From the NCBI GenBank assembly GCA_903813345.2, contig CAIIXF020000002.1, forward strand, positions 1,154,001 to 1,218,000: a DNA stretch of 64,000 bases. Reading direction: 5' to 3'. The DNA is from Owenia fusiformis. Lineage: Eukaryota > Annelida > Polychaeta > Sabellida > Oweniidae. The notes below the pieces were generated by a model, which made no database searches, had not been told where the DNA came from, and was given only the letters and a program-made list of their open reading frames with translations. Shown here one piece after another: positions 33,043-61,420 of the stretch (position 1 is its first letter; every line of letters begins with the position of its first letter). A program made the translations under genes and the position numbers.

Positions 33043-33065
33043 ATTCTAGGGTTTTATTGCCTTAA

Positions 33066-33778: not shown

Positions 33779-34021
33779 TCATGAAAATTGCACCATAAAA
33801 TAAAATTCTGGTTTCAATTCTGGTTTCCGTTTCTTAATCCTAGCTACTACGTAACGGTTGTATGTTTTATCTATCTTGATCAAAAAGTACCTTTTCACAT
33901 GTCTAACTTCAGTGTTGTCGTCATGTTCTGCAGATTCTGCCAATGGAGCAGATTGCGCCTCATAGATACTGCAAATTAGGAAAACTGCAATTCCAAGACA
34001 AATCACTGACCATGATTGCAT
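33779..34021 (-). CDS. Gene A: secreted peptide precursor, coding exon
   Basis: An 80-residue protein starts at the ATG at 34021, which follows a pyrimidine-rich acceptor (CTAATTTTTCCAG) directly. Residues 1 to about 24 (MQSWSVICLGIAVFLICSIY, then EAQS) form a signal peptide with cleavage likely near AQS/APL. Residues about 25-44 form an acidic propeptide (AEHDDNTEVRH) ending in VKR. After that Lys-Arg come 36 residues, YFLIKIDKTYNRYVVARIKK and a Lys/Pro-rich tail, with nine K/R against three D/E. This is the architecture of a secreted, dibasic-processed cationic peptide. The AAAAGGTACTT at the KR codon could also be a splice donor, in which case the C-terminus would lie in another exon. The function is unknown, and an antimicrobial or signalling peptide is only inferred. 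Confidence 0.7.
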   Translation of the reverse strand: MQSWSVICLGIAVFLICSIYEAQSAPLAESAEHDDNTEVRHVKRYFLIKIDKTYNRYVVARIKKRKPELKPEFYFMVQFS

Positions 34022-34076
34022 CTGGAAAAATTAGCATGCCTTCATGTCATATTAGCCTCGATAACAACCCCAAGGC

Positions 34077-34248
34077 CGGTGTAAAAGGGTAGGTGGTCCT
34101 ATCAAATTTTGGTCCTACTCTCTATTGATTTATATGGTGGCCTAATCACAATTATTTTCCTTATTATTTATACACAGTCAGGGCCGGTAAGGGCCGCAAG
34201 GAAAGGGGACCATAATCCCCAGGGGACCATAATTTCTTTTACACCGGT
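34077..34248. mobile_element. Small hairpin element in intron 1 of gene A
   Basis: CCGGTGTAAAAG at the left and CTTTTACACCGG at the right form inverted ends of a ~170-bp element. Confidence 0.5.
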
Positions 34249-35232
34249 ATTCTACGAACTCATACTTGGGCCAATTTATGATAATTTATATTTAAAAAAA
34301 TACAAAATTCGAAAATTGAAATATTCATATGGCGATGTTTTTTTCTTGAATTACAAAGGGAACACATTATATTTTATAAATTCGTAGGCGGCATCATTGG
34401 AACTAGATTGGCATTCCTCTCCTGAGCAATTTGAAAGAAATGAAAAATTAACATATTAATCGTTTAATAAGTCTGGTTTAATTTCAAATAAGATATTATT
34501 TATCACATTTGTGAGTGTCAAAAAAACAATAAACATGTTTCCTTTGATATAAGTTTTGCATTGTAAAAATGTAAGTAGAGCCAACGTTATTGTTTGTAAT
34601 TATTAGCCTCAAATTATTTTGAACGATCCCTATGTCAAAATTGATAACTTAAGAAATGGGCAAGATTCATTCATACAATTTTACATGAACAGTTCTTCCC
34701 CGATGTCCTTACTATAGGACATTTTTTATGGCTTCATTTAATACGTTTTTTCCAGGAGAGGGCGTCTAATAATCATGAATCCTCCAATACATCTGTTTTG
34801 GAGGATACATTTATATTAAACTCCATCTGTCATTCCAAGAGTACCCATTTTACTATTACATGTCCTACTTTATAACATCATAGATTGTTAATAATGTTGA
34901 AAAGCACAATACTTATACATTTATTTGTTTCAGACAGGTTCTAATCATGTCTTGAATAAAAGTAAAAGATTGACAAATGATACAGTTGGTCATTTAGAGA
35001 TATTAGGTTTGGTAATTACACTAGGCCTATTGTTATTAATTCTTCTGATGAAAGCACTGGGAGTGTATTTAGATCTAATCTAAGCTCATTCTCTCTACAT
35101 AGTATTTCCCATGGTCTCCTTCTAAAATCTACAGAGGGTACTCAATAACACATTTATATCACAGACTCTGAATAAGATAAAATGAAATTCAGGAATTAGA
35201 TGTTATAATGAGATATATATAAATACACTTAC

Positions 35233-35347
35233 TTTGCTATTCGGATGTTGAATCACTGAACAGTATATGAACTTCAATCGAATTTGCTTGTTCTAGAGTG
35301 TTCCTCTCGTCCCGATGGCAATCACTCTTTATAATGCGACTTATATA
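35233..35347 (-). promoter_or_regulatory. Gene A: TATA box and non-coding exon 1
   Basis: On the minus strand TATATAA (35341-35347) is followed by a segment almost identical to that of gene B: CGGGACGAGAGGAACAC, then TTGAAGTTCATATAC, then GTTCAGTGATTC. It ends at a GTAAGT donor (35227-35232). No ATG-initiated frame is conserved in this exon, and the conserved ATG lies at the start of exon 2. About 110 bp upstream of the TATA box is also alike in A and B (to about 35465). LINE-C begins immediately beyond it. Confidence 0.75.
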
Positions 35348-35499
35348 TCTTTACCCCTATATGGATTTTTATTACCTGATCAATGCTTTCGATTATGATT
35401 GGTTGAATTTTCAACTTAAGTGCCATGTTGTTCTTTATGACATTGATCATGTGTGGGTCAGAATTCAAAAAACAAGAAAATGCAGCAAATCAGCTCTTC

Positions 35500-37583
35500 T
35501 TAAACTAGGCACCACTTTAATTTTTCATTTAAAGGAAGCGTTAAGAACATATTAAATACATCAGGGGAGCATGAGGTTTTAATTCTGTTGTAAAAATCAA
35601 TTCTTTCACGTTGGTTGTGACTACTTGTAAAAAAGCTGTGTGTTAAATCATCAATTGGATGAAGGGAACAAAGTTTGCAAAAACCATCATCACATTTTCT
35701 TCTTTTGAGGTCAGTTCCAATACCTAAACACCCAGTTCTGGCTTTGAACTTCAATCTCTGTCCAACAAAATCATTACTTGAAGTAAAGTAATTCTCCAGA
35801 AATGGGGTTTGTTTGATTGATTCATAAAATTCTAGTGAAGATTTCGAGGAACATTCAGATAGAAAATTACTTTTGTGTTGTTGGGAGGATAAGGTCAAAA
35901 AAGAATCATACCATTCATTGTCATCTCTAAACACAACATCATCAAGGCCATGTTCAATTAAAATGTCTTGTATGTTTTCAAAATATGGCCAACATGTTTT
36001 TACTCTTCCCTTGAAATTTTCAAACAGTTTATCAAAAATTGCCTTATGTAGGCCGTTCCTCATGGAGAACTTAAGATATAAAAAATAATCAATTTGTCTT
36101 TTCTGAATAATGTTAATATTGCTTCTCCAGCCAAGGTCACCTAACATTACTGCTTTGGCAGGGTTACATTTAAGTTGAAAAATTGATTTGGCCAATTTAT
36201 ATTGCATTGAAGAAAGGGTCTTTTCAGAGGTCTTGTCAAGAATTAGAACACCACATCCATGCAACAAAGCAGGGAGGTACTGGGAGTAGTATAATGTATT
36301 ACCAAATGATATTCTATTATAGTTAATATGCTTAGTTAGGGTTGATGCAACTAGATTTCTTAACTTCTTATCCTTTTCTTTTAAAACAACATTCACGTGG
36401 TAGTCATCTCTTAATTGCCTATTTAGATGGATGCCAAGATATTTGTAAGTATCAACTTCTTTGATTTCAAGGTCACCTAATACCCAAGTTTTATTTTTTA
36501 TCTATTCGCTTGCCAATAACCATTACTTTAGATTTATTGGGGTCGAATTTGAATCCCCAGCAAGAGCCAAAATGATCTGCAATTTTTAGCATATGATTCA
36601 GTTGGCTCTCACTTTCGGCCATAAGAACAATGTCATCAGCAAAAAGTAATGTTGGGACTTTAATGTTATTAAATGGAATACCAAGGTTTTCTTTATTCAG
36701 TCTATCAACTAAGTCAGTCATGACTAGTGAGAATAGGGATGGGGATAAACAACAGCCCTGCTTTAATCCAGAATTACTAGAATACCATGGAGAGGTAAAA
36801 TTACCAAAAATAACTTTATTATAAACATCCCTGTAAGCCTCATGGAGCAACCGCCATATTTTTCCCTGAATGCCCATTTCCCAAAGTTTCACAAATAACA
36901 TATTGCAGTCAACAACATCAAAGGCCTTAGAAATATCCAAAAATGATAAAAATGTATTTTTCTTAGAGGATTTACGAACTGAGCATAAACCTTTTAGAGC
37001 AAAAAATGTGGTTTTCAAGTCTAAGATTTTCCCTGAAAGCTCCCTGGGAATCACCAAGAAGGTCACATGACTCTGAGTTAAGTTTAATTTTACTATCAAG
37101 TAGACTAGTATAAATTTTATAAACATTGGAATTCATGGTGAGACCTCTGTAATTATTTAAGTCAATGTTTAAACCTCGTTTGAATAAAGGAACAAGTAAT
37201 CCTTCTTTCCATTCTGTAGGCATAACTTCTAGGGATTTTACTTTGTTAAAAAGGTCAAAAAGGGAAGAAAACATTGTATTTCCCCCGTATTTAAGAAATT
37301 CATTAGGTATATTATCCGTACCACACTTCTTGCCATTATTAAGCTTTCTGAGACATTGCACAAGTTCAGCATATGTAAAGCAAAAGCTGTTTAAGGCATT
37401 ATTATCATAGTTAGTTTCCTTTAATAAAGAATCTATCTTATCTGATAGATTATTGGAGATAAACTTTGGATTACGATTATTACGCCCCACCCTTTCCCAA
37501 TACAAATGTAGAGCCTTAGATATGGCTTTAGGGTCAGTTAAGATCGTATCTTTGTTGTTAGGGTCTTGGATTTGACTCTGCAC
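35500..37583 (-). pseudogene. LINE-C ORF2 in three frames
   Basis: A nearly complete RT-bearing LINE ORF2 on the minus strand in three overlapping frames. Frame 36972-37583 holds KKCGTDNIPNEFLKYGG and LNNYRGLTMNSNVYKI, the N-terminal RT. Frame 36491-37126 holds SFLDISKAFDVVD (motif A), SGLKQGCCLSPSLFSLVMTD (motif B) and LLFADDIVLM (FADD box). Frame 35500-36396 holds the ~300-residue C-terminal part with CDDGFCKLC...H, a knuckle-like motif. The last two frames are bridged by a single-base shift (VDTYKYLGIHLN is readable between them at about 36430-36480). It ends next to the gene A promoter. Frameshifts make it inactive but it looks young. Confidence 0.85.
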
Positions 37584-37675
37584 GCAGCGTAATAGTTCCC
37601 CTATTATCCATGTTCATGTTCTCATTTGATTTTTCATCAGTTATGACTTGGTAACATTTGTTCCGATTTTCATTA

Positions 37676-37756
37676 CGGCGCCCGGCCGATTGAGTATTTT
37701 GTTCAGAATTGAATTGAATACAATTTTGAACAAAATACTCATCGGCCGGGCGCCGG
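37676..37756. repeat. GC-rich hairpin beside LINE-C
   Basis: The arms CGGCGCCCGGCCGAT...GAGTATTTTG and CAAAATACTCATCGGCCGGGCGCCG fold around about 25 bases. A related GGCGCC/CGGCCGAT sequence sits just outside the right arm at about 50620-50690. Confidence 0.65.
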
Positions 37757-38949
37757 TGCTGAAAATCTGAGCAAATGTGACCACGGCATTATAAAAGCAT
37801 ACTCTTTAATACACGAACAGATTCAAAATGAGACTTTATTTATCAGAGAAATAAAAATGGAAAATTTGTATTCTGAAAATATTAACTGATGCATTGGTTA
37901 GTATTAAATATTAAGTTTTACAGTCGGAAACCTCAAGTGGCGGGAAATTTGATTAAACAAAACGCCGGATTAATATGTGGACAACTTGCAAATGAAATGT
38001 AAGTAACATGACAGAACGAGTATGTACGCCCAATAAATACTTTTATAGTTTTAATGTGCATTCAAAGGACCCCGTTTGTAAAATTGATAGAAATGAATAG
38101 TTTTATTACCGGAAAAAACTGAGAAATATCTACCCGATTCGCCAGAATAGTCATCATCATATCAGTGCGAAAAATTAGCTATATTTATTTTCTATGCGAT
38201 GTACACCTGATATTGATAGCCTTCCACGATCATGGTCCGTTGACATCATCAACCTTGTGATTTGCCATAAGTGATTAACCAACATTTTAAAACAATTTAA
38301 AGTCGGGGTTGACGTTTCTTGACTTTTCACACTGACATCCAAACAAAACATAATTTGAAAATAAAAGGCATAAAATGGCCATTAAAAGTACATTTTTGAA
38401 CAAAAGTATCAACTTATATTACACTGCACGCAAATACAAAGTGAAAAGAACGTCTTCCCGGAGATTGAAATACGGATCGGTAAGTCAACAAATCTAACTG
38501 TTAAATAAACAAGCTTAGCCTATGTCTGCGATTGTTTGTCTGAGTGGCCAGATGTTATCCGTTTCGGATAATAAATTTCTGAGAATACTACTGATATCTA
38601 GAAAACATCTTCCGTGATATTTTTCATAAAACTACCCTTTGCATTCGTTTGACTTCACTTCTTAAAAGAGAGCTTCGTCTTAGTGTAGTTTAACTAGACT
38701 CTGCACGCAGGGTATCGTAAAACAGGCATCTTAGCTGCAATTTTGAATAATAGCGTAATTCATAGCACAATATAAATTAACCCACCTCTGTTTAATTCAA
38801 ATATGCATTACCCTTAAGAATCATATACTTAGACACCTTTTCATTCTTGATTCGAATTTTTATCTTGTCTTCATCTAAATTTGTGGATTAATAACAGTTT
38901 TTAGTATACAAATTGAACATACAAAATGTAGCGTATTGATTACACGTTA
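37757..38949. other. No recognised gene; bounded by a 14-bp direct repeat
   Basis: GACTCTGCACGCAG occurs at 37574-37587 and again at 38697-38710, bracketing about 1.1 kb that includes the GC-rich hairpin. It could be a target duplication, but the frame does not clearly continue across it. Confidence 0.4.
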
Positions 38950-43211: not shown

Positions 43212-43569
43212 TATGTGAAAATCAAGGATTGTGAGTCACACTGCACCGTTTCCTTTAAACGTGTTCCATTACATTTAACAAAAATGCCTTATTGTTGGGA
43301 CACTAATCTTGTATATAGAGTCCATCTTATTAGCGGCATTTTGGGTCCCAAGCTGAGAATCGGCGCTATTGCCTGGGTCACATTTGCACCAATTCATCAA
43401 TAAACATAATACTATATACATAGTTTAGCATAGTTGAGCATAGTTGGGATAATAATACTTTGTTTAAACGAACTAGAAAACGTTAACTAGGTCAATATAG
43501 TAGCCTGTACAGAAAATATGTTCGTCGTGAAGAGTTCATTATAAGTGAAATGAAGAAATAACAATTTAC

Positions 43570-43700
43570 TGCATTTTTAGTTGATTTATTCTAACACAAA
43601 CGTGATCAACGACATAAAAACGTGGCACGCAAGTTGAAAAATCAACCAATCATAATCGTATGCATTGATCAAGTAATAAAAATTCAGATAGGACTAACGG
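43570..43700 (+). promoter_or_regulatory. Gene B: conserved upstream promoter block
   Basis: The landmarks GTGGCACGCAAGTTGAAAAA, TCAACCAATCATAATCG and GCATTGATCAAGTAATAAAA are shared with the region upstream of gene A. The first is shared with a fragment at 61330-61400 upstream of gene C. A CCAATCA (CCAAT-like) box lies about 55 bp before the TATA box. Confidence 0.65.
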
Positions 43701-43814
43701 TATATAAGTCGCATTTTAAGAGCGATTGCCATCGGGACGAGAGGAACACAAAAGAACAGACGAATCTGATTGAAGTTCATATACGGTTCAGTGATTCGAC
43801 ATCCAACTAGCATA
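43701..43814 (+). promoter_or_regulatory. Gene B: TATA box and non-coding exon 1
   Basis: TATATAA (43701-43707) is followed by the exon segment shared with A (CGGGACGAGAGGAACAC, TTGAAGTTCATATAC). A CATA/GTAAGT donor lies at 43815-43820. A transcription start near 43731 is inferred from the TATA spacing. Confidence 0.75.
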
Positions 43815-44646
43815 GTAAGTGTATTTCTAGATATCCAATTAACTGGGAAAGTTAGAGCAAAACTGTATGGGTTTCATCGCATGTTAAGTCAACATTAATT
43901 ATTTGTGAGTCAATCAAACAAAAAAGGGACTTCTGAATAGACCACAATGAAATCATATTTGTAAATGTTTATTACGAACTATGGTCACTCAGGAACCCAC
44001 TCCGGTAAAATAGCGCCGAGGCAGAATATTTCAACGCCACAGAAAAAAATGTAATGTCATAAACATATCCTGCATAGATTTTGCTCGTCTGTAGATGGCA
44101 CAGGGCACAATGCTCAATGGGCAGACCAAGTGGTCCGGAATCAGACTAAATGAAGATTTTGTTATGTCAGCACTGCCATTGTTTTTATGTGTTATATATT
44201 CTAATGTTTGAACAAAGAGTCCCTTTCTTCTTCCTTATGCTCTTTATACACTCAGAAATATAAATTACAATAGACCCAGTGTAAGCAACACACATCACAT
44301 GTCTCTCTGACTGAGTGTATAATAGAGAAATATCGAAACTCATGTTTATTATTCGCGTAATTCGTATAACTTGTGTAGAGTTTAATCACCTCATGATTTA
44401 TTGCGCAGCTCTAGCGCCCATTAGTGTGATATTCTTATGAGTAGACGACGGTTCATAAGAATTGATAAGAACTCTATATTTCCTCAAACCCATCAAGATT
44501 CATTAATCTAATTTCATGAACAACGGCTGTACTGTTACTGCATTTTCTCTGAATTCAAAATACGCCGTACGGCTGCCGTAGCAAATGTAACTGCTATGTA
44601 CGGTTATATGGTTGTTATTCGAGTTGTATGTTATACGAAGCCATGC

Positions 44647-45001
44647 ATCGTTTTCAGATGCAGTACCTGTCAGTGATTTATCTTGGATTTGCAGCTGTCC
44701 TCATTTGTAGCATCTATGAGGCACAATCTAATCCACTCGCTAAATATTCGATAAAGGCATACTTTTTTCAGATGCAATCCCTGTCAGTGATTTATCTTGG
44801 AATTGCAGCTGTCCTCATTTGTAGCATCCATGAGGCACACTCTAATCCACTCGCTGAAGATTCAATAAACGCATACTTTTTTCAGATGCAATCCCTGTCA
44901 GTGATTTATCTTGGAATTGCAGCTGTCCTCATTTGTGCCATCTAAGAGACGCAATCTGCTCCACTCGCTGAATATTCGAGAAAGGCATGATTCTTTTTCA
45001 G
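44647..45001 (+). repeat. Gene B: three tandem extra acceptor/signal-peptide exons
   Basis: Units of about 114 bp each contain a TTTTCAG acceptor, an ATG and a signal peptide (SVIYLGIAAVLICSI). Their ATGs are at 44658, 44772 and 44886, and the fourth, functional-looking one is at 45002. Units 1-3 are in one frame, so translation from unit 1 runs through the second signal peptide and stops in unit 3 (after LICAI, 44943-44945). Proteins of about 95, 57 and 19 residues would result from acceptors 1-3. Units 1 and 2 read SNPLA in place of SAPLA and lack the VKR site. Confidence 0.8.
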
Positions 45002-45184
45002 ATGCAATCCCTGTCTGTGATTTATCTTGGAATTGCAGCTGTCCTCATTTGTAGCATCTATGAGGCACAATCTGCTCCACTCGCTGAAGTTGTTGAACAT
45101 GATGACAACATTGCAGCTCAACCTGTGAAAAGGTACTTTTTGATCGAGATAAATACAATATATAAACAAGTACGCGGTAGCTAG
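45002..45184 (+). CDS. Gene B: secreted peptide precursor, coding exon
   Basis: A 60-residue protein starts at the ATG directly after TTCTTTTTCAG. Signal peptide: MQSLSVIYLGIAAVLICSIY then EAQS. Propeptide: APLAEVVEHDDNIAAQPVKR, acidic and ending in Lys-Arg. C-terminal peptide: YFLIEINTIYKQVRGS, much shorter than in gene A because a small insertion shifts the frame near GTAGCTAG (compare A, which reads on through the same bases). It is close to gene A at DNA level through the signal and propeptide region. An alternative is splicing at AAAAG/GTACTT (about 45133) to a good acceptor TTGTTTTTTCCAG at 45234. That would give a different C-terminus containing cysteines. Transcript data would decide. 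Confidence 0.65.
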   Translation: MQSLSVIYLGIAAVLICSIYEAQSAPLAEVVEHDDNIAAQPVKRYFLIEINTIYKQVRGS

Positions 45185-45524
45185 GCATTTATCAAGAAAC
45201 GGACATTGTTTTTTATACATATTGTTTTTTCCAGTTCAACAAGTTTACATAATTATTGTATTAATATGTATGCACTGCACAAGATGCTAAAAACGAATTT
45301 ATGTTGTGTGTAAGAAATTTGTTCACTGTTGAAATCAATGAAAAAACTTGATTTACTGCTCAAAGGGTAATGCTTGTTTTAAGTCTTGCCTTTAATTTTC
45401 TAAAATAGTTCAGTCAAATCTCAAATTAATTTTTCAACAATTACTTATTTAATGCACTGCATGTTCTATGAAAGGTCTCACGATTTAACAAATCTTACTT
45501 CTGTATTATGAAACGTTACATTAA

Positions 45525-45841
45525 CCCTTTCCCGACGTGAATATAAGAGGAAAATGTTGGCCCTGGTGACGGATAAGTAAGAGCAGTTTTTAGGGGAAAA
45601 CTGAAAATTACCTATGCCCAGGGACCTATACCTTGAATTTTATCACTGAAATACATTTTCTAGTAAGGACTATCGTATTAGAACAACTTGTCAAAATTTG
45701 GTGTAAAAATACTGAATAGAACTGGAGATATTATCATTTCATCGATGTATATAAATAAAAATTATGGTGCCAAAAGGAGCCTATCGTCCTGAAAGGTATT
45801 ACATAATAGGGCTCCATATGGAGCCCATCGTCGTGAAAGGG
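45525..45841. mobile_element. piggyBac-like MITE downstream of gene B
   Basis: CCCTTTCCCGACGTG on the left and CGTCGTGAAAGGG on the right are flanked by TTAA on both sides (45521-45524 and 45842-45845). TTAA duplications with CCCTT...AAGGG ends are typical of piggyBac-derived MITEs. The palindrome GGGCTCCATATGGAGCCC lies near its right end. The body is non-coding, 317 bp. Confidence 0.75.
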
Positions 45842-47938
45842 TTAATTGAACAAAGTATTCAGGACTATAAAATATCGTCATTTGCTTTTGAATTACTTAA
45901 CATTCAATCCACTAACGTACAACTTGTCTATGCTAACTCAGAGTCGATATTTGTGTATCATCATACAGGGTTACCCCAACAACAGAGCCCTCTAAAAATG
46001 TTATAATTATTTTAATTTATGTATGATCATTTTTTATTTTCCATGTACAGATACAATCTATGGATGACAATGTAACAACAAATTCGTAACACAATCTTAA
46101 TATACTTCTTGTTATTGTCAATTAAAAATGTGCCCACTTTTGAAAGAAAAGAACAATTCAAGATGTTTGTGTCAAGCAAAGGCTTCCTCATCCTTCGTTT
46201 AAACCAATCACATTCATTTGGCTTGGAGGTTAAGATCATTGATGATATAGAGAAATATTATGAGAACTTTATGATATATCCTCGTAGGTATGTAAATATT
46301 AGGTCAAATGTAGCTGAACAATATTGTGTTACCTGCTCCCTAATTATGCGTCTAAAGAATTTCATACCATGCACTAAAACATCCATAAAAGATTCAGAAC
46401 AATCCGTGTGATGTTTTGTCCTGAAGCCTGTACACAACACTTCATAACCAAGATTTTCGGGTGAAAAATCCATAAATGGCCAACAAAAATGGGAAACTGA
46501 TTTACATTTTGCCGACTTTTTACGAAATTATCTCACAAACTACTGTTAACAGGGACATTGGTTTTCGTTACAGGCCACTGGAAAATATTATTTATTTCCT
46601 TTATTAAACTACTCCATAACATGCACTACTAAAAAAACTACTAAATGCACGAGGTGAACTAGTGCAAATGTTAGAGACTGCTTTTCTTTGTTTTGCAGAT
46701 GTCAAACTGGATGCAAAAAGATGATACAGATTAAGTCCAACAGTGATAACTCGGGAAGAGAAAACTGACATTTTTCGATTCCAATAAGCCATTATCGTCT
46801 TATTATAAGCCAACAATATTTGACAAAATAAACGTACAACGTTGATATATTTTATTCTGTTTTCCTTTTAAATCTTGGAACACTGTGGCTAGTCGGAATA
46901 TGTTGATGCGGTCATGTACATGTAATGTATCGTAGGTGCTCGCGTACATTATAGGGAATTGGGTCTTTGCAAAAATATAACAGCAAATCGAGGTTAGTGA
47001 TTTCAGAGTTCCAATTCTCAACCATTAATGCCATATCCGGGATCCACCTCAAAACGTGCCAGATGAAAAAATTGTGAGTTCATTGCCAATTTATTATACC
47101 ATTCCTACATCATTCAGCATCTCAAGTGTTAAAACTTGAAATTTCGAAATTAATGACTTGTACTTTTCAGCAAAGCCCAGAAAGTTTTTCTTAGTTTTTT
47201 TACAAGTATAACCTTGACAGCTTGATCACTAAAATATGGTGTCTTGATTTGAACACGCCCTGCTATATCTAATAAGCTGGGATACATAAACCCCATATGC
47301 TCGGTTAAGTGGAATATTGCTATTGAAAGTATCTAATTCACCTATAACAATCCAACAATTCTTGTTTGTTTTATTTTTTTGCTTTGTTGTAATGGTATTG
47401 CAGAAGAATACGCAGTTTTGTTCCTTCTAAATCAACAAAATGTTATGCATTTTTAGAAAATTAGGCATTACTATACATATTTTCTCAAGGTTTGAAGAAG
47501 TACTCGTTTCCATAAGTCGCGCGCTCAATACCCGGGCTTGTCATCATCCAAATCCGCCTTTGAAAAAGTGTGAACGGTTCATATCTAGACTCGTTCGTGT
47601 TATTTTTCCTTAGTAGCCGTTGTTCTGATATATTATCTTAGTTAACATCGAGAACGAACGAGTATAAGGGATCGTCTAGCTTTGCACATTTAAGACCAAT
47701 CATTATACATGACTAATGTGTTTAACGTCTTGGTAGATACAAAATAACACCTAGGCTATAACGTTCTAATAAAACGAGCTTTTATATTTCATGGCCTCAT
47801 TAAACAGTTATTTCGTTTGGAATGGCCTAAAACCCTGGTCTGCGAAACACACATTTAAATAAGGAATTGGCGCACCCGGTGTAAAATGGTTCCCTCCTCT
47901 CGATTTAAACCTATTTATAAGTCAGGTTGTGGATAATA

Positions 47939-48789
47939 GAGAGATTTCGCACACAAGTGAAAGTACAACTTATACGTATACGTATAGTTTAAAGGGTCAT
48001 GTCGAACTATTATATTTACTAAAATCAATTTTAAATTGTACTTAATGGAACATAACTATAGAAAAGCTCCATCAACCAGAGACTGTGAATGCACTGTCAT
48101 CTGCACGTGTAAACTATGCACATTATAATTAAATGCTTGCTTCCGTGTCATAGTAGTTGTAGTATATTCTAAACACGATCCTTCAAAGTGAGTCATGATC
48201 CTTTCAAGTGAGTCATTACATAAACAAGTTGATTATTTCAAAGTTTTCACGATCAGTATAAGTTCAATGAACTTACAAAATTGTATATACACGTAGATGA
48301 TAAACGTATACAGTTGGATCTACGTATAACGCTTTACCTACATGTGTGTGGAACAATTGACCGCAAGCATTTTTTAAAATTAATCGGCTGAGTAGGAACA
48401 GTATCCAATCAAATACTTTAACCATCAATTTGAAACACCAATCAAACCAGTAGATTCTAGCAATTCCTGGAAACGACCCATTCAGTAGCTCAACAAATGA
48501 CATACAGGGTGTTTCATAACGAGCATCTCCAAAAAGTCAATTTGAGAAGAGATGGGTCTATATGTATGAACTATATATGAGCCTATTTTATTCTAGACAA
48601 ACACATTTGGATCAACTAAACATGCTACAATTCAAGAACGTACAAATGGCATCCCTTTGACCTTTACTTATTACAGTCCGAGAAGATCTTTCCTGACGAA
48701 ATACCCACATTATGAAACACCTTGTACGTCTTCTTTAAAAGTATAAGTATACGTTATAAGTTGTATTTTACGTATGTGCGAAATCTCTC
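47939..48789. mobile_element. TA-flanked TIR element in right arm
   Basis: Same element as 25506-26355, with GAGAGATTTCGCACA ends. Confidence 0.65.
48505..48724. mobile_element. Nested 220-bp mariner-type MITE, right arm
   Basis: CAGGGTGTTTCATAACG and CATTATGAAACACCTTG ends flanked by TA. Identical in length to the left-arm copy. Confidence 0.7.
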
Positions 48790-51008
48790 CTTATTTGGCA
48801 CAAAAGTAAATAAAATAATGTTCTGGCGGTTTGGTATGTTGTCGAAGACGCAATTCACATATTTATTCGTTTTCGCTAAGATATTTTATTTCTCGATTTA
48901 AACCTATTTATAAGTCAAGTTGTGGATAATAATTTGGCTCAAAAGTAAATAAAAGAATGTTCTGGCGGCTTGGTATGTTGTCGAAAAATTACAAATGTTG
49001 ATCATCTTACTTCGAATTGTGAACACAATTTTTTTGGTCCAAATTTTGAACACCTTTGTTCAAATCTTATTGCATATGACCAAATTTTGGACACCTCAAA
49101 TTTTTCGCAGACAAAACAAAACTGGCGTGCCTTCAATTCCTTCGGCAAATGCGTAAATGTACTGGATGACAAACTAGCTGGATTGCGGATAAACTAATTT
49201 CATTACATGTATGTATGTACGTACATGTGATCATCGTCGGTTCCCACGCTCAATCACTACGTTCTAGGATAGGTCCGAAGCTTGATGAAGCAAGATGACA
49301 TATGATATGAATATCTATTATCTAGATGTACTTAATTTTAAAAAATATTCTAACATGTACGTAGAGAGGATTAGTAAGACTAGAGGTTTAGCAAATGATG
49401 TGAATGAAGTAATCTAGCTGATATTTATATCTTAATTTTTTTTAACATGTACGTAAACATGGGGAATATCTTTAAAGATCTAGAAAACAATGTTAATGGA
49501 GATCTGGATTATATTTTCTATTTTTGACATCTATGTTCACACAAGAAATATGATTAGAGAACCGACTTGTTGCTTACAGTCGAGCCCTACCCCTGCCCTA
49601 TATTTGGCAAATTGAAAATCGACAAGAAATCAAGTCAGACTTCTTGAAAATAACATAACGGCAAATATCTATCAGTATTTGATTCATATTTATTGACTGA
49701 TATAGGTTACCCTGTAAGACTATGTACATGTATACATACAATATCGGTGCCAGTTAAAGATGCTAACTTAAGAGCAAAAAAGGCTCCAAAACTTAATAAA
49801 ATATGTAGTTTGGATGTTCATTTATGTCTATGGACTATAATTTATACCACAAACACTTATAAATACCTGAACTTTGCAATAAAAGTGCCCAAAAATTGTT
49901 GTTTCGAAATTCCCCATTTTTCCTGTATCGCGCTAGTCACGTGACCATTACGCGCAGCAGGCAATGTAGAGCATTACAGATATTATATGTACAGTTGCAT
50001 ATTTCAACATGTTCAATATGGCAAACATCAGCGATTCTGATTCCCGGGTTCTGGGAAATGGCTATATAAATCGGCGAGAGGGTGTAATTTGACTGAGGAC
50101 AATTTAGGAGGGGAAATGTCTCTAAGTAAGAGAACAGATATGGGGACTTTAGACATATGGACTTTACTATGACGGAGAATCAACAAAAAACGTGAGTTCT
50201 GGAATGAAGACTCAGCGATCTTTTATCCTATTTGTTGAATTTAGACGCGGAAACACCCTTGGTATACGCAGCTAACGAAAATTGACAGGTACGGGTCAAA
50301 AGCTGGACCGGTACGGGTTAACGGTTTTATTTGAATTTAAAACAGCCATAACTTGCTCAATATTGACTTCCTCGTGTCTAATTTGAAATATATGATGCCT
50401 CCCGATGCTTTTAAGTACCCCAATTTTTTACAGATTTTTAAACGGACCAAAACTCTAAATGCGCATTTATGCTCTTTTCTCTCGGGAAAGACTGTCTCGA
50501 GAGAAAACGACTGTCTATTTCTATGAACATAACAAGTGTAAATTCATGATAAGCGTAATTAAGAGATCATTTTTGATTTTTTTCTAAAATTACACATAGG
50601 TAATGCCTAGGTCAAATAGCCGCCGTGCGCCAGCCGATGGGTAGTCATCGGCCGATTTCTAAATCGACCGGGCGCCGGTGACTTATCACCGATGTCTTGA
50701 TCAAATCAGTCAAGATGGTACAACGAAAATTGGACTTCTGCGCATGTTAACATTTTTTGTCAAACTCAACTTTTGTTCAAATTGATACGATTGTCATTCG
50801 AACACCTACCTCATTCGAAATTCAATTCATGTATATGTTGCGGTTTAACAGAAATTCTTAAAATGACATCTAGACTACATATAAAAGAAATCACTTATAT
50901 TATGTTACATGTAGGTATATAAAATGGTATTAACAATTACTTGAAGGATGTGAAAAAATCAGGTACCAGTATAAAATCAACAATACCGTTTAATATTGGT
51001 TCTATACA

Positions 51009-53037
51009 TTATCGATAGATGAGTAGTTTTTTATATGAAGATTTGAAAATATTTAGAGTGGAGCATTTTTTAATATCATCTGGTAGAGCATTCCAAAGAT
51101 TAGGACCTAGGTAGCGAAGGGAAAGTTCAGAGCATTTAGGGATATGAAAATAATGCAACTGTCTTGTGTTATGATGATGGACATTAATGTTGATATCAAA
51201 CAAGTCTTGAAATATATTTTTGGAAGACTTGGGTGTTTATTAAAGATTTTGTACATGAACTGACCAGTACAGTATCTATTAACATCAAAAATATTTAATA
51301 TTTTATGATCTTTAAATAGGGGAGCGGGGTGAGAAAGTCTATCCTTATTTAAAGCTAGCCTTAAGAATTGTTTCTGAAGTTTATGTAGACAATCATAAAA
51401 TGATTTAAATGTGTTTCCCCAGATTACGTTGCAATAATCTAATTGAGAGTGTATCAATGAGTAGTAAACTGTTTTGAAACTGTCTATTGGAAGTAAATGT
51501 TTATTGTGATACAGAGAACCAATACCACGAAAAATCTTTGTTTCAACAGATTTTATGTGCTCTTTTTATCAATAATAATTCCAAGGAAGTCAATTTTTCC
51601 CGGAAATTTATGTTCTCATTGTGTATTTTAAGATTTAGATTTGTTTGATTTGTTTTGGGTCCAAATATAATAGCATTGGTTTTGCCAATATTAAGTGAAA
51701 GTTTGTTTGCTTTTATCCAGTCATCTATTGAATTCAAGTTTGCATTAGTTCTAGTCATAAGTTCATTTAAATTATAATCACTATCAAGAAGATGGGTGTC
51801 ATCAGCAAACATAATAAATTTCAGATTAGGGGCAACAATAGGCAGATCATTTATGTAAAGAATAAATAATAGTGGTCCAAGTACAGAGCCCTGTGGAACA
51901 CCACAATTTAGAGATGATTGTCTAGATTCATTATTGTTAATGGTGACATATTGTTTGCGATCTTTTAAATAACTTTCAAACCAGGACTTAGCTATTCCTC
52001 TGATGCCATAATATTCAAGTTTATGTATCAAGATGTCGTGATTAATTGTGTCAAAGGCCTTAGAAAAATCTAATGTTATGCTAATGCTTGTTTTTCCCAA
52101 ATCAGCTGATTTTCAAAATTGTTCAATGAAATATAAAATGGCCATGTAGGTAGAAATGAATTTCTGAAATCCAAATTGATAAGTGAAAATAATTTCAAAA
52201 CGTTCTAAAAAACAGTGAGTGTGGCGTGCATGAGCTTTTCCAACAATTTAGAAAATACTGATAAAACTGAAATTGGTCTATAGTTAGAAGGATTTGTAGT
52301 GACACCTTTTTTAAATATAGGTGTTACTTTGGCCAATTTGAGGGCATCTGGAAAAATACCAGATTTAAAAGATAAGTTAAATTTATACAAGAGTGGATCA
52401 ATTAAAAACTGTCTTGCAAATTTAATAAGTGGTGGTAGAATCCCATCAGGTCCAGGAGAGGAAGATTTTAGAAGACACATTTCTAGGTCTTTTTGAGATG
52501 AATAGATGATTGAACCTTTTTAACTCTTGCTAGGTATTCATTTAAGCATTTTTTGGATTTTGGAATCTCCTTGGCTAGATTTTTACCAATATTGGTAAAA
52601 AATTATTAAATCCATTAGAAATAATTTCATGATCTGTTGTTTCCTTTCCATTTATAGTGAATTTAGATGGCAATGCAGCTCTTTTTTCCAAGTAGTTCAT
52701 TAATGATAGACCAAGATTTTTTAATGTTACCACTTACTTCAGCAAACTTATTTTGATAATGTGTACGTTTTGAGTATTTGATTATGTGCTTAAGTTTATG
52801 GTTGAAGGACTTGTAAGCTTTCCTGTTTTGCAACAGGGATTTTTCAAATATTTGGTATACAGCTTATTTTTAGTTTTGGCAGAAGTTAAGATGCCAGAAG
52901 TCAACCAGGGTCTATTTGGATCATAATTAACCTTGATAAATTTGGATTTGAGTGGAAATGAAGAATCATATTGTTCCATTAACAAGTTAATGAAGATATT
53001 AAATGCTATGTCTACATCTTGACTTTTAACGGTTAAT
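51009..53037 (-). pseudogene. LINE-D ORF2 in several frames
   Basis: A CR1/jockey-like non-LTR retrotransposon on the minus strand. 52782-53037 gives the linker after the endonuclease (NIFINLLMEQYDSSFP, PWLTSGILTSAKTKNKLY). 52205-52480 gives SSSPGPDGILPPLIKF and PSNYRPISVLSVFSKLLEK. 51543-52100 gives TLDFSKAFDTINHDIL (motif A), CGVPQGSVLGPLLFILYIND (motif B) and FADDTHLLDSD (FADD box). 51009-51457 gives the C-terminus (SQLDYCNVIWG, LRYLGPNLWNALPD). The frame shifts near 51570 and between 52100 and 52205, and 52480-52780 is degenerate. It starts where the next LINE begins, so its 5' end is missing. Confidence 0.88.
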
Positions 53038-53499
53038 ATGAAAACTAACATTATCCACCATCGTCCAAAGGATCACATGCGGTCCCAATTCGTGTTTCGA
53101 TGTGGTGTCATTGAATATGCATCACAATACAAATATTTAGGACTTACCTCAAATGAGCACATGGATATGTCTAAATCGGTATCCATCCTTGCCAAATCAG
53201 CCACGCGTGCCCTAGGAGCAATTATGACAAAATTCCGTCTAAAAGGAGGAATGAACTACAATGTTTATACCCAGCTTTACGACTCTATGGTCGACCCAAT
53301 TCTGTTGTACGCTGCCGGCACATGGAGTGCAAACGTCACCTCAGGAGCGCATGCAGTCAAGATACAAAACAAAGCAGAACATTTCTACATGGGAGTTGGT
53401 AAATGTGCACCGAACGATGCAACACGTGGAGACATGTGCTGGACTGACCCGAATGTGCGACAAAAAGTCGAAAAGGCCAGGCAGTGGTGTCGTTTTATA
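53038..53499 (+). pseudogene. LINE-E, RT-distal part (sense segment)
   Basis: The open frame reads the region just after the RT catalytic core of a LINE: NIIHHRPKDHMRSQF, EYASQYKYLGLTSNEH, LAKSATRALGAIMTKF, MVDPILLYAAGTWSA, KIQNKAEHFYMGVGK, then VEKARQWCR. The similarity stops at about 53499 in mid-domain. It has no catalytic motifs, so it is a 5'-truncated fragment. Its natural continuation appears in reverse complement immediately downstream (53500-54268). Confidence 0.75.
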
Positions 53500-54280
53500 A
53501 TTTATTTACGTCTCACGCTAAAAGTAGTAAAAATACATCTATATACTAAAAACAAAACATTAGCCCAGCCGGTATTCGGCTTATGAGAGACTGAAACATT
53601 AAATACTGATATCTAAAGTTGTAAAATCTAAAATTAATCAATAAAATATTTTTTGCGATTTAAAAGCATATTGTTTACAACCTTAGCTAATGTTCGTTTG
53701 TCATGAGAGTACAGTATTTACCCATACTAGATAGCTGATCAAAGTTAAGTATGTGTAATCTGGCTTTCTCAAATAGGTTAATTCTTAAAGTTTGATGAAG
53801 TAAACAGTCCACGAGAAAGTGTATCTCGTCCTCGACGATGCCACGCTCGCATATACATGTTCGTTGGTTAATGGGAACACCAGTGTATCTGCCAGTTTCA
53901 AGTCTCAGAGGCAGTGTACCCGTTCTGAGTTTAGCTAGATTTGAGCGTTCATATCTATTTAGGCTAATGCTAAGATAGTGTTTGGGTTCTGTTTTGTGTA
54001 TCTTGTGGAGTCGATATGTCCTAAGTTTATTTCCTTTTTCTTGGTTCCTAGAATCGTTCCATATGGAGTTGTGCCAAGCTATATGCTGTTTTGAGATTAG
54101 GTCCAATTTATTCTTTTTAATTTCATGTTTTACTGATGGGATGTAGTCATCTGTTATGAAGTGGTTTGCCTTTTCACGTTGCAATTCTAGCTTAATCTTA
54201 GAGTCCCATGATCGTGGTTGTGTTAAAGACCAGTTGTGGATCCGTTTTGTGATTCTGTCGTTATTCATGTTTAAAACCTA
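53500..54280 (-). pseudogene. LINE-E, C-terminal part (inverted segment)
   Basis: A 193-residue minus-strand frame begins NMNNDRITKRIHNW (54268 downwards). It continues with RSNLAKLRTGTLPLRLETGR, then TCICERGIVEDEIHFLVDC, a C-x-C...H...C knuckle region, and ends at 53687. Its 3' untranslated part runs to an A/T-rich tail at about 53500. The residues before NMNNDR in the same frame (VL) would follow ARQWCR of the adjacent plus-strand fragment, as in related LINE proteins. The two pieces are therefore most simply one copy with its 3' part inverted in place. Confidence 0.75.
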
Positions 54281-54659
54281 AAAACTTTTATAGCAAGGGG
54301 TCCAGTCAACATTTGAGAGTTTTGCAAAAGTAGAGAACATACATTTCATTGATGTATGTAAATATAAAATTGTGCCAAAATGAGGACGAAACAGATTCAG
54401 TCAAAAATCTCCATTTTCGGGCACATGTAAATCAAATTCCTCACCCCGGGGACGACAATCTTCGTCAAATCCCTACCCCTGGGAGCAATAAACTTGGTGA
54501 TATGGTCCTGGATTGTGATATTGGCACTTGGATGGTGAGGGAGGGGGGGGGTATGTACTGTTGATGTTATCTTGGTGAAAGTTAATAACTGAAACAATTC
54601 TGCTGTTTTACATTCCAGGAGTTGATTCTCACATAATTCTCAATTCTACAATAATTATA

Positions 54660-55776
54660 TAGTACCCCGGACAGGTTGTATGATGCAGTCGTTTTTTTAC
54701 TCTATATTTGCAATAGAACAACCATTCTTATTAAAATTTTCACATTTTATTCTAGAGACAATTTCCAACATGGAAAAAAAATATTTTAATGAAATTCCTA
54801 ATTTTATGATTTTGATAGGCTTTTTTCAAAAATACTCCACTGTCAATAAAATACAGGTTTCGCTTGAACAATTAAACTTTTAACGTCATTTCAAAGATTG
54901 TCTAGTTATTGAAGAATTTTTTTTAGTATTAAGAATTTTTGGCAGCCTAAAGTCTTTCCAGATGTATTTGATGCCATATTAATTATGGCTGATTATTGTT
55001 ATTCATTTTTGTCATATTCAATGGGGCTAATATTATTACAGTGCATTAGGCCAATGAAAAACTTGTCACTCTGGCTCACGTTTCCTCTGAAAACGCACCT
55101 TTTTCTCCACTGGGTTTTTCCGCCACCGTCACTCAGCATGCAAGCCCGTGGCACATAAATTGTACCATGCTTTTAAAATGTCAGGTCTCCCTGACAATTT
55201 CATGATAAAATTTGACACAGCTATATTAACATCTCTGAAGGATCTAATGCCAAGAATACTTGAAATTGGAGATTCGTAATGTTTTACTTCATTTTGGACA
55301 GTATTGAACAGTTCGATCGGGTTGAACTCATGTCCGTGGACAAGAAGATGGACCTCCTCTATCTAGGGAACGCTTCACAAAATGAGACCCAGAGCAACAA
55401 GTTTTTATTGGCCTAATGCACTGTAATAATATTGAGTATGACTCAAGTGAATAACAATAATCAGCCATAATTATTAATATGGCAACATATATATCTGGAA
55501 AGACTTTAGGTGGCCGAAAATTCAATGGCCAGACAATATTTGAAATGACGTTAAAAGTTCAATTGTTCAAGCAAAAACCTGTATTTTATTGACAGTGTAG
55601 TGTTTTTGAAAAAAGCCCATCAAAATCATAAAATTGGGAATTTCGTTAAAATATATTTTTGCCATGTTGGAAATTGTCTCTAGAATAAAATATGAAAATT
55701 TTAATAAGAATGGTTGTTTTATTGCAAATATAGAGTAAAAAAATGACTGCATCATACAACCTGTCCGGGGTACTAC
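54660..55776. mobile_element. TA-flanked TIR element with ~400-bp inverted arms
   Basis: The ends GTACCCCGGACAGGTTGTAT and ATACAACCTGTCCGGGGTAC are inverted and flanked by TA. Inverted similarity continues for about 400 bp on each side, with landmarks CTGATTATTGTTATTC / GAATAACAATAATCAG and CAGTGCATTAGGCCAATG / CATTGGCC-type. The centre (about 55080-55390) has no recognisable transposase. The short frames on both arms (MMQSFFYSIFAI...) are not called. Confidence 0.75.
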
Positions 55777-55789
55777 AATGTTTTTCATG

Positions 55790-56620
55790 AACTACAATTA
55801 CATTATTAGCAGCTTTGTCCGCTCAGATTAAAACTAAATTGTTTTGAAACCTGTGGCTCATCTAAAACTTTGTCAGTATTTTCAGAATATGCCATTTATT
55901 AACAATATATTTAACTTTCAATACTCACTCATCTAATGAAACTTTATCTTTATGATTCTGTTTTACCAAATTTCTAACATGTTTCAACAGCTTCAAAATT
56001 TGTTTTTACTGTAACGCCATTAAATTGGATTCTGTTCACGAAAGTTTTCACATCAAATTACGAAGTTCTCTATTTTATATAAACTAAGTCTATTGAATAA
56101 GACTTGTGAAGTTCGACATGCCGTCAGTTATATTATTCAAAAACTATATTATATGTAAAATATTCATGTCAGCATAGTCGATCTGTTCTTCACACGGGTG
56201 ACTTTGGTTGTTGTTATTGTATTCATAAAAGTCACTTTGAACAGTTCTTAAATTGGTTTCTCATAATAGGGGTCCCAAAGTAAAACAGACGTTGCACAGT
56301 AATTCCTCTCAAACTCAGTAGCGAGGGTTAACCATTCACTGGAGCAGTCTCTGAAAAAAGCAATTTCGAGCAAAATGTACCCACCACTATCGGTAGTTTT
56401 GTGAGAACTCACTTTTTGTACCGACATTTTAGAGAAACACTATATTGAATCCCTTATATCGATTTGAGATTTAATATAAATCATGTTCAATAACAAAATA
56501 GTAAACTTTCATAATACAGAAGCAAAATCTTTAAATCATGAGACATTAGAACATAATTATGAGCAAAAAATAAATTGAAAATGATTGTGAAGAATTGATA
56601 GCGAAAAGTGTGATTTATTC
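55790..56620. other. No recognised feature
   Basis: AT-rich spacer downstream of gene C, without a supported gene. Confidence 0.5.
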
Positions 56621-56623
56621 GAC

Positions 56624-56992
56624 TTAACTAGCAATGCTTAATAATTTTTCATGAAACGTCCACAGTATAACACAAAATTGGTGTCTTAGCAGAATTTGGC
56701 CATCATCATGGAAAACTTGTAATTGTGTATAATAAAAATTGATGATGAGTTTAACAAAATATTTTCTTTGTTGGAATACTTTCAATTTCATCCTGTGAAA
56801 ACAAGCCCTGTTACGGATCAAACGCATTGGATTTATATGTATATGTGTCTTGGTCATAATGTACCTTTTCACACGCTGAGCTGCAATGTTGTCATGTTCA
56901 GCAACTTCAGCGAATGGGACAGATCGGTTCTCATAGATGATCCAAATCAGGACAACTGAAATTCCAAGATGAAGCACTGACGGGGATTGCAT
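56624..56992 (-). CDS. Gene C: secreted peptide precursor, coding exon
   Basis: The third paralogue starts at the ATG at 56992, which follows GCTTCTTCTTCAG directly. The frame is 122 residues. Signal peptide: MQSPSVLHLGISVVLIWIIY then ENRS. Propeptide: VPFAEVAEHDNIAAQRVKR, ending in Lys-Arg as in A and B. The region after it (YIMTKTHIHINPMRLIRNRA and onward) is longer and unlike A beyond the first residues. Either it has diverged strongly or true coding ends earlier. The signal hydrophobic core is interrupted by charged ENRS close to the cleavage site, so processing may be weaker. Its promoter is interrupted by a TIR element, so expression is uncertain. The open frame extends 74 residues upstream of this ATG, but the acceptor and the paralogues favour 56992. 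Confidence 0.6.
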   Translation of the reverse strand: MQSPSVLHLGISVVLIWIIYENRSVPFAEVAEHDNIAAQRVKRYIMTKTHIHINPMRLIRNRACFHRMKLKVFQQRKYFVKLIINFYYTQLQVFHDDGQILLRHQFCVILWTFHEKLLSIAS

Positions 56993-59400: not shown

Positions 59401-59406
59401 GCTTAC

Positions 59407-59490
59407 TTTGCTATTCGGATGTCGGGCCACTGAAATCGAATTGCAGCAACGATCCCTTGTTCGTTATTGTTTCTCTCGTCACAATGGCAA
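59407..59490 (-). promoter_or_regulatory. Gene C: non-coding exon 1
   Basis: On the minus strand the segment GTTGCCATTGTGACGAGAGA through CGACATCCGAATAGCAAA matches exon 1 of A and B and ends in a GTAAGC donor (59401-59406). The TATA position is degenerate: no TATATAA, with TTGCATAATA in its place. Confidence 0.65.
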
Positions 59491-59535
59491 CTGCTTTTTA
59501 TTATGCAACACAATACATTTACTCCTTCTATATTA

Positions 59536-61292
59536 GTCCATGGTATGACTTCTGAATATGAAAGATCCGTAGAACACTATAGCACTGCAACATCTGAAGC
59601 AATATTTATCAAGGTGTACATGTCTTGATTCTTTTAAAATACCATTTGCTGAAAAAGCTTTCGGGTCGAAAAATGTCTTTCATCACAAGGGGTCAAAAAA
59701 CGTAAATATTTTGATTCGAACGTTTATACATTTTATAAGACACAGACCGTTATTCTAAGCATGCGAACAAAAAAAGATTATCATAATTTAAAAATATTCT
59801 ATTTAATTTTACCGTAGATGTCGGTGTTTAATTAATGTAATTATGCAAGTGTGTTTTTCAGATCTTGTTTGATTTTTCAAATATGAGCCTAGCCGATTCA
59901 ACAAAATTATGTGGACTATTTAGGTAATTTATGATTGGGAACATATTAGTTTTCTTACCATTTAAAACATTTTATTACCAGAATTTTCCATATAATCGCA
60001 AGAGGTCTAACAACAAATTATTGTTCATGTTTTATATGTAACATGGCCATTTTCATACTTTCATATTTCTCACTTTTCATATTGATCAATCCTATATATT
60101 TCACTTATTCTCATTTTAACAGGTCCCTAGCTTACTATTGTATCAGTGCCAAATGTTTTAATCCTGTTGTTTGCCAATACCTGCTATCTTTTGTTTCAAA
60201 CCTGTTTTTATTGCTGTTCATGCTGTGTTCATTTTGTTTTGTGTTATATTCCTTATATGGAAAACATACTCACTCACTTGAGTTTGGGTGTTGGCCCAGC
60301 CTCAGTAGTTGCTTTGAGATTGTACAGAGAATACTGTGTTTGTTTATTTGAAATAGACTTTTTATACATTTTAACTTTGGCATTTTGTTATCTTTATTAT
60401 CGCCACCCACGGCCTTAGCCCCGGACATTACATATAAAACATAATACAATAACAAATAGGTAATATTTATATCTCATTAAATGTTACAGAGGTATTGGAA
60501 TGTTCATATATTCCAAATTCATGTCTAATAATCAATTAGAGTCATATGCAATCGAACGCCTCGAAATTCTTCTTCGACGTTACTTGTGGCTATCATCAAG
60601 TTTTCCGACGGCTGTTTGTTCTTTGACTTTTCCGCTGGATACAATCAAATTTTAGGAAGATAGTGACAACGATTTTTCTCATTTATTCATGAATTCGATC
60701 AAGTCTTGATGGTTGTTTTATAAGCAACTGTGCTATACCTAACTACGGGAAATGGAATTTTAGCTGTTGTCCCAATTAGTCAAGGTAGAGCAATATGCCC
60801 TCCTTTTCACCGCTGAATAAAAGTCCATATCTCAAAACGTATTGAGACCCCTTTTGTGAAAAACTAGCATAATTTAAACATTTGTCATTCCAATATAAAA
60901 TTCATTCATTTGAAGCATATATCTTATCAATACCTGAGAAACAATACAAAACGTCGATACACTGATTACATATTTTTGGGTATTGATAAGAAAAATAACC
61001 TAAAAAATATAGCTTAGAAACCTAAATCATATATTTAAAATCATTTTGTATTATTTTCTGATGCATTGTGTACTCCAAATTGTGAAAAATTGGGATTTTA
61101 TTTTTTGATGATTTTTTGACCTCTGTTAATGGCAGGCATAATTCAGCCTAAAAGCCGGAAGTATATTGAACGGTTATAATAAAAATTGTTAGGGGACATA
61201 TGTAGGTATGTTAATGTAAGGTCAAATATCGCTGCGCTATAGTGTGCTACCAGCTCCTTTATTAGACGTCCTAGAGATTTCATAACATGGAC
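59536..61292. mobile_element. GTCCATGG TIR element, copy 2, in the gene C promoter
   Basis: The left end GTCCATGGTATGACTTCTGA and the right end CATAACATGGAC are inverted and flanked by TA (59534-59535 and 61293-61294). It is homologous in reverse to 22668-23630 but has about 650 bp extra (about 59765-60425), probably a further insertion. It separates gene C exon 1 from its conserved upstream block. Confidence 0.75.
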
Positions 61293-61294
61293 TA

Positions 61295-61420
61295 TACGTA
61301 TGTTTATCACTTGAACAATGTTTTCCAATATGATGGTCGATTTTTCAACATAAGTGCCACGTTTTTTCGATGTATTACAAATATGGTTACGTGTGTTTCA
61401 GAATCAACAAGAAACTGTAA
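61295..61420 (-). promoter_or_regulatory. Gene C: displaced upstream promoter block
   Basis: On the minus strand ACGTGGCACTTATGTTGAAA, then AATCGACCATCATATTGG, then CATTGTTCAAGTGATAAA match the block upstream of the TATA boxes of A and B. It is now about 1.76 kb from exon 1. Confidence 0.7.

What the first reader, a model, noticed from the sequence alone, without database searches (positions are those of the whole stretch)
33779..61420. Three-member family of secreted, dibasic-processed peptide precursors
Genes A, B and C share the same plan. A promoter and a non-coding exon 1 end in GTAAGY. Exon 2 begins exactly at ATG after a pyrimidine-rich CAG, and encodes a signal peptide and an acidic propeptide ending in VKR. 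A and B have near-identical TATA promoters and are head-to-head. The C-terminal peptide after VKR is the fastest-changing part: 36 residues and cationic in A, 16 in B, and long and different in C. Conserved prepro-region with divergent mature region is the known pattern of antimicrobial and similar peptide families. I do not recognise this family. Gene structure is seen in sequence; function is inference.
Basis: partly seen in the sequence, partly recalled or inferred. Interest (0 to 1): 0.8.

Follow-up and report, generated by a model that had tools for sequence, protein, structure and literature searches.

The report
Partly decayed secreted-peptide gene family
Three related animal genes share a promoter and the front half of a secreted peptide precursor, but one copy looks broken, one is cluttered with partial repeats, and the supposed active peptide at the end has not been shown to be real.

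Summary
The gene skeletons are real. Genes 1 and 2 align over promoter+exon 1 (249 of 251 bases) and prepro (132 of 132), but over 72-147 of 843 intron-1 bases. Their prepro is mildly constrained (dN/dS 0.32; P about 0.02).

Three corrections. Gene 3 looks dead: repeat-like DNA splits its promoter, TATA is gone, dN/dS is 0.8-1.1. Gene 2 has three extra partial start exons, one with a stop. The tails after VKR are not shown to be mature peptides: genes 1 and 2 differ there by 1- and 5-base gaps, all three carry AAAAG|GTAC (possible donor) at VKR, and lengths 16 and 36 are near chance.

No relative was found, but no animal genomes or transcriptomes could be searched. Most likely an ordinary lineage-specific secreted-peptide cluster, partly pseudogenised; antimicrobial function is analogy.

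The parts
35319..35490 (-).
   Evidence: 82% identical to gene 2 block 43564-43841; TATA and CCAAT; its upstream edge lies about ten bases from the end of an open frame 35500-36501
35233..35318 (-). Gene 1 exon 1, non-coding (start approximate, about 30 bases after TATA)
   Evidence: no ATG; donor AAA|GTAAGT at 35232
33890..34021 (-). Gene 1 prepro segment, 44 aa ending in VKR
   Evidence: dN/dS 0.32 against gene 2
33779..33889 (-). Gene 1 tail ORF after VKR (36 aa, net +6, then stop), or first part of an intron
   Evidence: candidate donor at 33890; gaps of 1 and 5 bases against gene 2
43564..43729 (+).
43730..43814 (+). Gene 2 exon 1, non-coding (start approximate)
   Evidence: no ATG; donor ATA|GTAAGT at 43815
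44651..44972 (+). Three extra partial copies of the gene 2 start exon (ATGs at 44658, 44772, 44886), each with its own CAG acceptor; third has an in-frame stop
   Evidence: tandem repeat 44651-45088, period 114, 3.8 copies, 90%
45002..45133 (+). Gene 2 prepro segment, 44 aa ending in VKR
45134..45184 (+). Gene 2 tail ORF after VKR (16 aa, net +1, then TAG), or first part of an intron
61292..61366 (-).
   Evidence: 79% identical to gene 2 43616-43691; no TATA
59535..61291 (-). Repeat-like DNA that splits the gene 3 promoter from exon 1
   Evidence: three stretches match 22666-23611 at 77-86% and one matches 19693-19811 at 72.5%
59407..59492 (-). Gene 3 exon 1, non-coding (start approximate)
   Evidence: no ATG; donor AAA|GTAAGC at 59406
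56864..56992 (-). Gene 3 prepro segment, 43 aa ending in VKR, signs of decay
   Evidence: dN/dS 1.08 and 0.83; N at -3 of the expected signal cleavage site
56624..56863 (-). Gene 3 open frame after VKR (79 aa, then stop)

Best explanation
A small cluster of paralogous genes for a secreted peptide precursor, partly in decay. Shown: shared promoter block, exon 1 without ATG, and an ATG-initiated exon coding a hydrophobic leader and a short pro segment ending in VKR. Inferred: a TATA promoter drives a transcript whose 5'UTR intron is removed; signal peptidase cuts after about residue 24 (AQS|AP); a furin-like convertase cuts after KR to release a C-terminal peptide, probably a defence peptide by analogy with bivalve precursors of this plan. 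Gene 1 is the only copy in which I saw no defect. Gene 2 gives a VKR product only if splicing picks the fourth of four start-exon acceptors. Gene 3 is probably a pseudogene. The DNA after VKR is not shown to be the mature peptide.
For: Promoter+exon 1 (249 of 251 bases of gene 2) and prepro (132 of 132) align between genes 1 and 2, whereas of the 843 intron-1 bases of gene 2 only 72 align to gene 1 and 110 to gene 3 at a 35-bit cut; counting the edges of the exon blocks it is 147 and 199. Prepro dN/dS is 0.32 for genes 1/2, Fisher P 0.016 and binomial P 0.020. The only gap in the prepro alignment of three genes is one codon long. Gene 3: dN/dS 1.08 and 0.83, promoter split by repeat-like DNA, no TATA, N at -3. 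Gene 2: extra start-exon copies. Tails: frame-breaking gaps.
Against: No transcript evidence of any kind. The constraint signal rests on 25 differences in one gene pair. The gene 3 frame is open for 79 codons after VKR, probability about 0.003 per trial at this base composition, against simple decay there. At a loose 20-bit cut 178, 171 and 300 intron bases align, so the exon/intron contrast is strong but not absolute. Gene conversion could also keep exons alike without selection.
Confidence: 0.5

Rival explanations
1. Each start exon ends at AAAAG|GTAC inside the VKR arginine codon (phase 2 intron). The tails are intron, and the true mature peptide is coded by exons further downstream, as in bivalve peptide genes whose mature region sits in a later exon.
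For: AAGGTAC is invariant in all three genes. It scores in the top 5-6% of all GT sites in the window and is the best donor around the gene 3 tail, second in gene 1 and fourth in gene 2. Tail DNA of genes 1 and 2 has non-triplet gaps. Scallop big defensin genes have an extra phase 2 intron that splits exon 2, and CRP-I mature peptides lie in a fourth exon (passages of PMC7203481, and PMC10138031).
Against: The site lacks G at +5 and scores 0.9-1.3 against 1.6-3.7 for the three exon 1 donors (recalled matrix). No recognisable downstream exon: no secreted-peptide Pfam family in the sense frames 45130-50600, 28000-33889 and 50500-56863, no solved-structure match at E up to 0.5 in the first of these, and no translated match between the downstream regions of gene 3 and genes 1 or 2 better than E 0.85 outside the 54.6-55.8 kb inverted repeat. 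Short fast-evolving exons would escape these tests.
Confidence: 0.27
2. One reading: three working two-exon genes whose mature peptides are the rapidly diversified tails after VKR, an antimicrobial-type family.
For: ORFs run on past VKR; the gene 1 tail is 36 aa with net charge +6; ATTAAA lies at 33779 and 33765, at and just after the gene 1 stop; known mussel families combine a conserved leader with a variable mature region (passages of PMC5577615, PMC10138031).
Against: Gene 3 defects and gene 2 clutter as above. The 16 and 36 codon tails have chance probabilities of about 0.30 and 0.07. The first 30 tail bases are as similar between genes 1 and 2 (25 of 30) as the prepro (107 of 132), so there is no jump in divergence at the cleavage site; what follows differs by frame-breaking gaps. 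ATTAAA/AATAAA occurs 2.5 times per kb per strand in this window.
Confidence: 0.18
3. The shared segments are only a dispersed repeat that happens to hold an open frame.
For: The region is dense in reverse transcriptase fragments, inverted repeats and tandem repeats; gene 2 has tandem copies of the start exon.
Against: A repeat copy would carry its intron along; intron 1 is poorly alignable while promoter/exon 1 and prepro align fully, and the prepro shows a synonymous excess in genes 1/2.
Confidence: 0.05

Closest known systems
Big defensins of bivalves (PMC7203481, PMC3182236, passages seen)
   Same: In most, coding starts in the second of three exons; signal peptide and pro segment ending in a dibasic site; scallop genes have an extra phase 2 intron that splits exon 2
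   Different: No hydrophobic domain and no six-cysteine beta-defensin-like domain found here; no Pfam match
CRP-I peptides of Mytilus (PMC10138031, passages seen)
   Same: Conserved signal and pro region, dibasic site, variable mature region, clusters with pseudogenes
   Different: CRP-I coding sequence spans exons 2-4, part of exon 2 is 5'UTR, and the C-C-CC-C-C array is in exon 4; here signal and pro lie in one exon that starts at ATG, and no such array was found
Myticalins of Mytilus (PMC5577615, PMC12294457, passages seen)
   Same: Exon 1 is 5'UTR only and the ATG is at the 5' end of exon 2; dibasic site; pseudogenes common
   Different: Order is signal, cationic mature peptide, dibasic site, acidic C-terminal extension; here the acidic part comes before the dibasic site. 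The signal consensus printed in PMC5577615 (MKGXXLLLLTIXXALCMIXECEG) is different

Membership tests
Big defensin | Non-coding exon 1 and exon 2 with signal and dibasic pro segment | tested here: met
   Sequence-level only, no transcript:
Big defensin | N-terminal hydrophobic domain and six-cysteine beta-defensin-like domain | tested here: not met
   Tails of genes 1 and 2 have no cysteine and that of gene 3 has two; no Pfam match of that kind for precursors or nine sense frames downstream. A short split exon could be missed
CRP-I | C-C-CC-C-C cysteine array after the dibasic site | tested here: not met
   Tails lack it. Of the 15 candidate downstream exons printed (of 87), one at 22477 has six cysteines but no CC pair
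CRP-I | Coding sequence split over exons 2, 3 and 4 | tested here: inconclusive
   Signal and pro lie in one exon here; whether further exons exist is unknown
Myticalin | Signal, cationic mature peptide, dibasic site, acidic C-terminal extension, in that order | tested here: not met
   The acidic segment precedes VKR
Secreted dibasic-processed prepropeptide (functional kind) | Cleavable signal peptide and convertase site | tested here: met
   Hydrophobic core 2.85-3.29 (Kyte-Doolittle, 11 residues), A/S at -3/-1 in genes 1 and 2, KR at the end; gene 3 has N at -3. No trained predictor was available
Secreted dibasic-processed prepropeptide (functional kind) | Expression and release of a mature peptide | not testable with these tools

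The most novel reading that the evidence does not exclude
A previously undescribed family of animal secreted peptides in which a constant promoter, 5'UTR exon and prepro exon are kept while the released peptide is remade by frameshifts, and in which one gene carries a tandem array of four start exons, each with its own splice acceptor, ATG and signal peptide.
Probability: 0.15. Interest if true: 0.6.

Novelty: new member of a known kind. Interest (0 to 1): 0.3.

Why it matters
If real and expressed, it would add one lineage-specific secreted-peptide family, possibly of immune function, to a group of gene families where presence/absence variation and pseudogenes are common. It also warns that reading past a dibasic site in genomic DNA can mistake intron for a hypervariable mature peptide.

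Tried and rejected
Pfam on the gene 2 precursor and three + frames of 45130-50600: 0 families at E up to 1. Pfam on gene 1 (79 of its 80 residues were given), gene 3 and a gene 2 partial-copy frame: none for gene 1, four matches below cut-off for the other two. Pfam on three sense frames each downstream of gene 1 (28000-33889) and gene 3 (50500-56863): two matches below cut-off and one reverse transcriptase; the gene 1 arm 23723-28055 itself and the gene 3 side beyond 50500 were not scanned this way. Solved-structure sequences: best E 3.5 for gene 1 and 1.2 for gene 2 (gene 3 not searched), nothing at E up to 0.5 for three frames. Contig scans for the prepro: none confirmed of 17 viral and 46 prokaryote pattern matches; expected for an animal gene, so no evidence of novelty. 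Six prepro fragments in the full-text library: 0 papers. Rfam and tRNA: none.

Candidate downstream exons (acceptor weights of my own, phase 2 rule): 26, 27 and 34 of at least 15 aa downstream of genes 2, 1 and 3; only the 3, 4 and 8 with four or more cysteines or at least 45 aa were printed and looked at. One pair (47457 and 26842) recurs, but lies in the 98.5% identical inverted repeat, so its likeness says nothing about coding.

Translated comparison: one search used linked E-values and printed at most 15 rows per pair; one search repeated it without linking. Outside the two inverted repeats, genes 2/3 and 1/3 gave nothing better than E 0.85, and genes 2/1 gave only matches at the edge of the inverted arm or to 22655-22756 below E 0.1. 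A ten-residue match of genes 2 and 3 that looked strong has E 4.2 on its own.

The intron count (72 of 768) left out intron edges that continue the exon blocks; one search gives the full count, and the report uses it.

Results against my reading: the 79-codon open gene 3 frame; the first 75 or so tail bases stay fairly similar between genes 1 and 2 (25 of 30, then 29 of 39 with 6 gap columns); some intron bases align at a loose cut.

Full report
Naming. The window is AT-rich (GC 31-39%) and carries several reverse transcriptase fragments.

Check of the observation. All three exon 1 donors and all three CAG|ATG starts are at the stated bases. The prepro segments are clearly homologous: E 6e-17, 2e-13 and 5e-10 for pairs 1/2, 2/3 and 1/3 within the window; identities to gene 2 are 75% and 70%. 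The exon 1 stretches have no ATG. Genes 1 and 2 share TATATAAG and CCAAT at matching positions in an 82% identical block.

Is it gene-like or just shared DNA? Between genes 1 and 2, promoter plus exon 1 align over 249 of 251 bases of gene 2 and the prepro segment over 132 of 132. Of the 843 intron-1 bases of gene 2 (up to the first start-exon copy), 72 align to gene 1 and 110 to gene 3 at a 35-bit cut, and none of 1211 between genes 1 and 3; counting intron edges that continue the exon blocks the first two are 147 and 199, and at a loose 20-bit cut the three counts are 178, 171 and 300. This contrast is what functional exons and promoters leave behind, and it argues against a plain repeat. The prepro segment of genes 1 and 2 has dS 0.47 and dN 0.15, ratio 0.32; 14 of 25 changes alter the amino acid where 76% would be expected, P about 0.02. 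The signal is modest and depends on one pair.

Gene 3 looks inactivated. Its ratios are 1.08 against gene 2 and 0.83 against gene 1. Its promoter block lies at 61366-61292 and its exon 1 block at 59534-59291, with about 1.76 kb between them, of which three stretches match a repeat at 22666-23611 and one matches 19693-19811. No TATA is present by either block. Asparagine replaces alanine at -3 of the expected signal cleavage site. Against this, the frame stays open for 79 codons after VKR, which is unlikely by chance alone (about 0.003).

Gene 2 is cluttered. A 114-base unit holding CAG|ATG and the signal-peptide code is repeated 3.8 times at 44651-45088. Only the last copy reaches VKR; the frame from the first copy runs through the second and ends at a stop in the third. 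A product with VKR therefore needs the fourth acceptor. This array was not in the finding.

The tails. In the alignment of the three genes the prepro has a single gap, of one codon; after VKR genes 1 and 2 need gaps of 1 and 5 bases. Identity does not drop at the cleavage site: 107 of 132 in the prepro and 25 of 30 in the first 30 tail bases for genes 1/2, and the 5 differences there fall 2, 2 and 1 on the codon positions. All three genes read AAAAG|GTAC across the arginine codon, a possible phase 2 donor in the top 5-6% of GT sites of the window, though it lacks G at +5 and is weaker than the three exon 1 donors. Open lengths of 16 and 36 codons are near chance (0.30 and 0.07). So the tails may be intron, decaying coding sequence, or real peptides; the data do not single out the last.

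Downstream search. No Pfam family of secreted peptides was found in sense frames of 45130-50600, 28000-33889 and 50500-56863. Translated comparison of the downstream regions, without linked E-values and outside the two inverted repeats, gave nothing better than E 0.85 between gene 3 and the other two, and between genes 1 and 2 only matches at the arm edge or to a repeat near 22.7 kb below E 0.1. A short fast-evolving exon could be missed by all of these.

Mechanism. Most likely: a TATA-driven transcript, removal of a 5'UTR intron, secretion, signal cleavage near AQS|AP, convertase cleavage after KR, release of a C-terminal peptide. Shown: the sequence signals. Inferred: every processing step and any function. 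A defence role is by analogy with mussel and oyster precursors of similar plan (passages of PMC5577615, PMC10138031, PMC7203481, PMC3182236). An ATG at the 5' end of exon 2 after a 5'UTR exon is itself the published plan of myticalins, so the architecture is not new.

Verdict. It fails the tested cysteine, domain or domain-order features of big defensins, CRP-I and myticalins, so it is not filed in any of them. Novelty of the family cannot be judged without animal sequence collections; six prepro fragments occur in no paper of the held library, which is weak evidence.

Noticed in passing
23723-28055 and 46245-50589: A 4.35 kb inverted repeat, 98.5% identical, lies downstream of genes 1 and 2 in the same orientation relative to each gene, although the genes themselves are only about 82% identical; recent gene conversion, a mobile element or an assembly effect are all possible.
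   Followed up: partly
4103-14541: A large inverted arrangement: 4103-5111 matches 14541-13476 (89%) and 6639-7491 matches 13220-12355 (86%), with tandem units of a GGACGCT-type motif near both ends.
   Followed up: no
29740-33045: Inverted and tandem block of about 370-base units (29740-30478 matches 33045-32304 at 92%) between gene 1 and its inverted-repeat arm, next to a reverse transcriptase fragment at 28602-29093.
   Followed up: no
35500-37613: Minus-strand open frames, one with a reverse transcriptase domain (36494-37132), end about ten bases upstream of the conserved gene 1 promoter block, so a LINE insertion probably lies between the head-to-head genes; the frame nearest the promoter has no Pfam match of its own.
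   Followed up: partly
45414-45519 and 56598-56501: A 69% identical block about 300 bases past the start exon of genes 2 and 3; possibly a shared 3'UTR or intron element.
   Followed up: partly
22655-22756 and 46286-46387: The outer edge of the inverted arm near gene 2 resembles the start of the repeat at 22.7 kb (79% DNA over 95 bases; translated E 4e-6), as if arm and repeat belong to related mobile elements.
   Followed up: no
54660-55083 and 55775-55380: An 84% identical inverted repeat pair downstream of gene 3.
   Followed up: no
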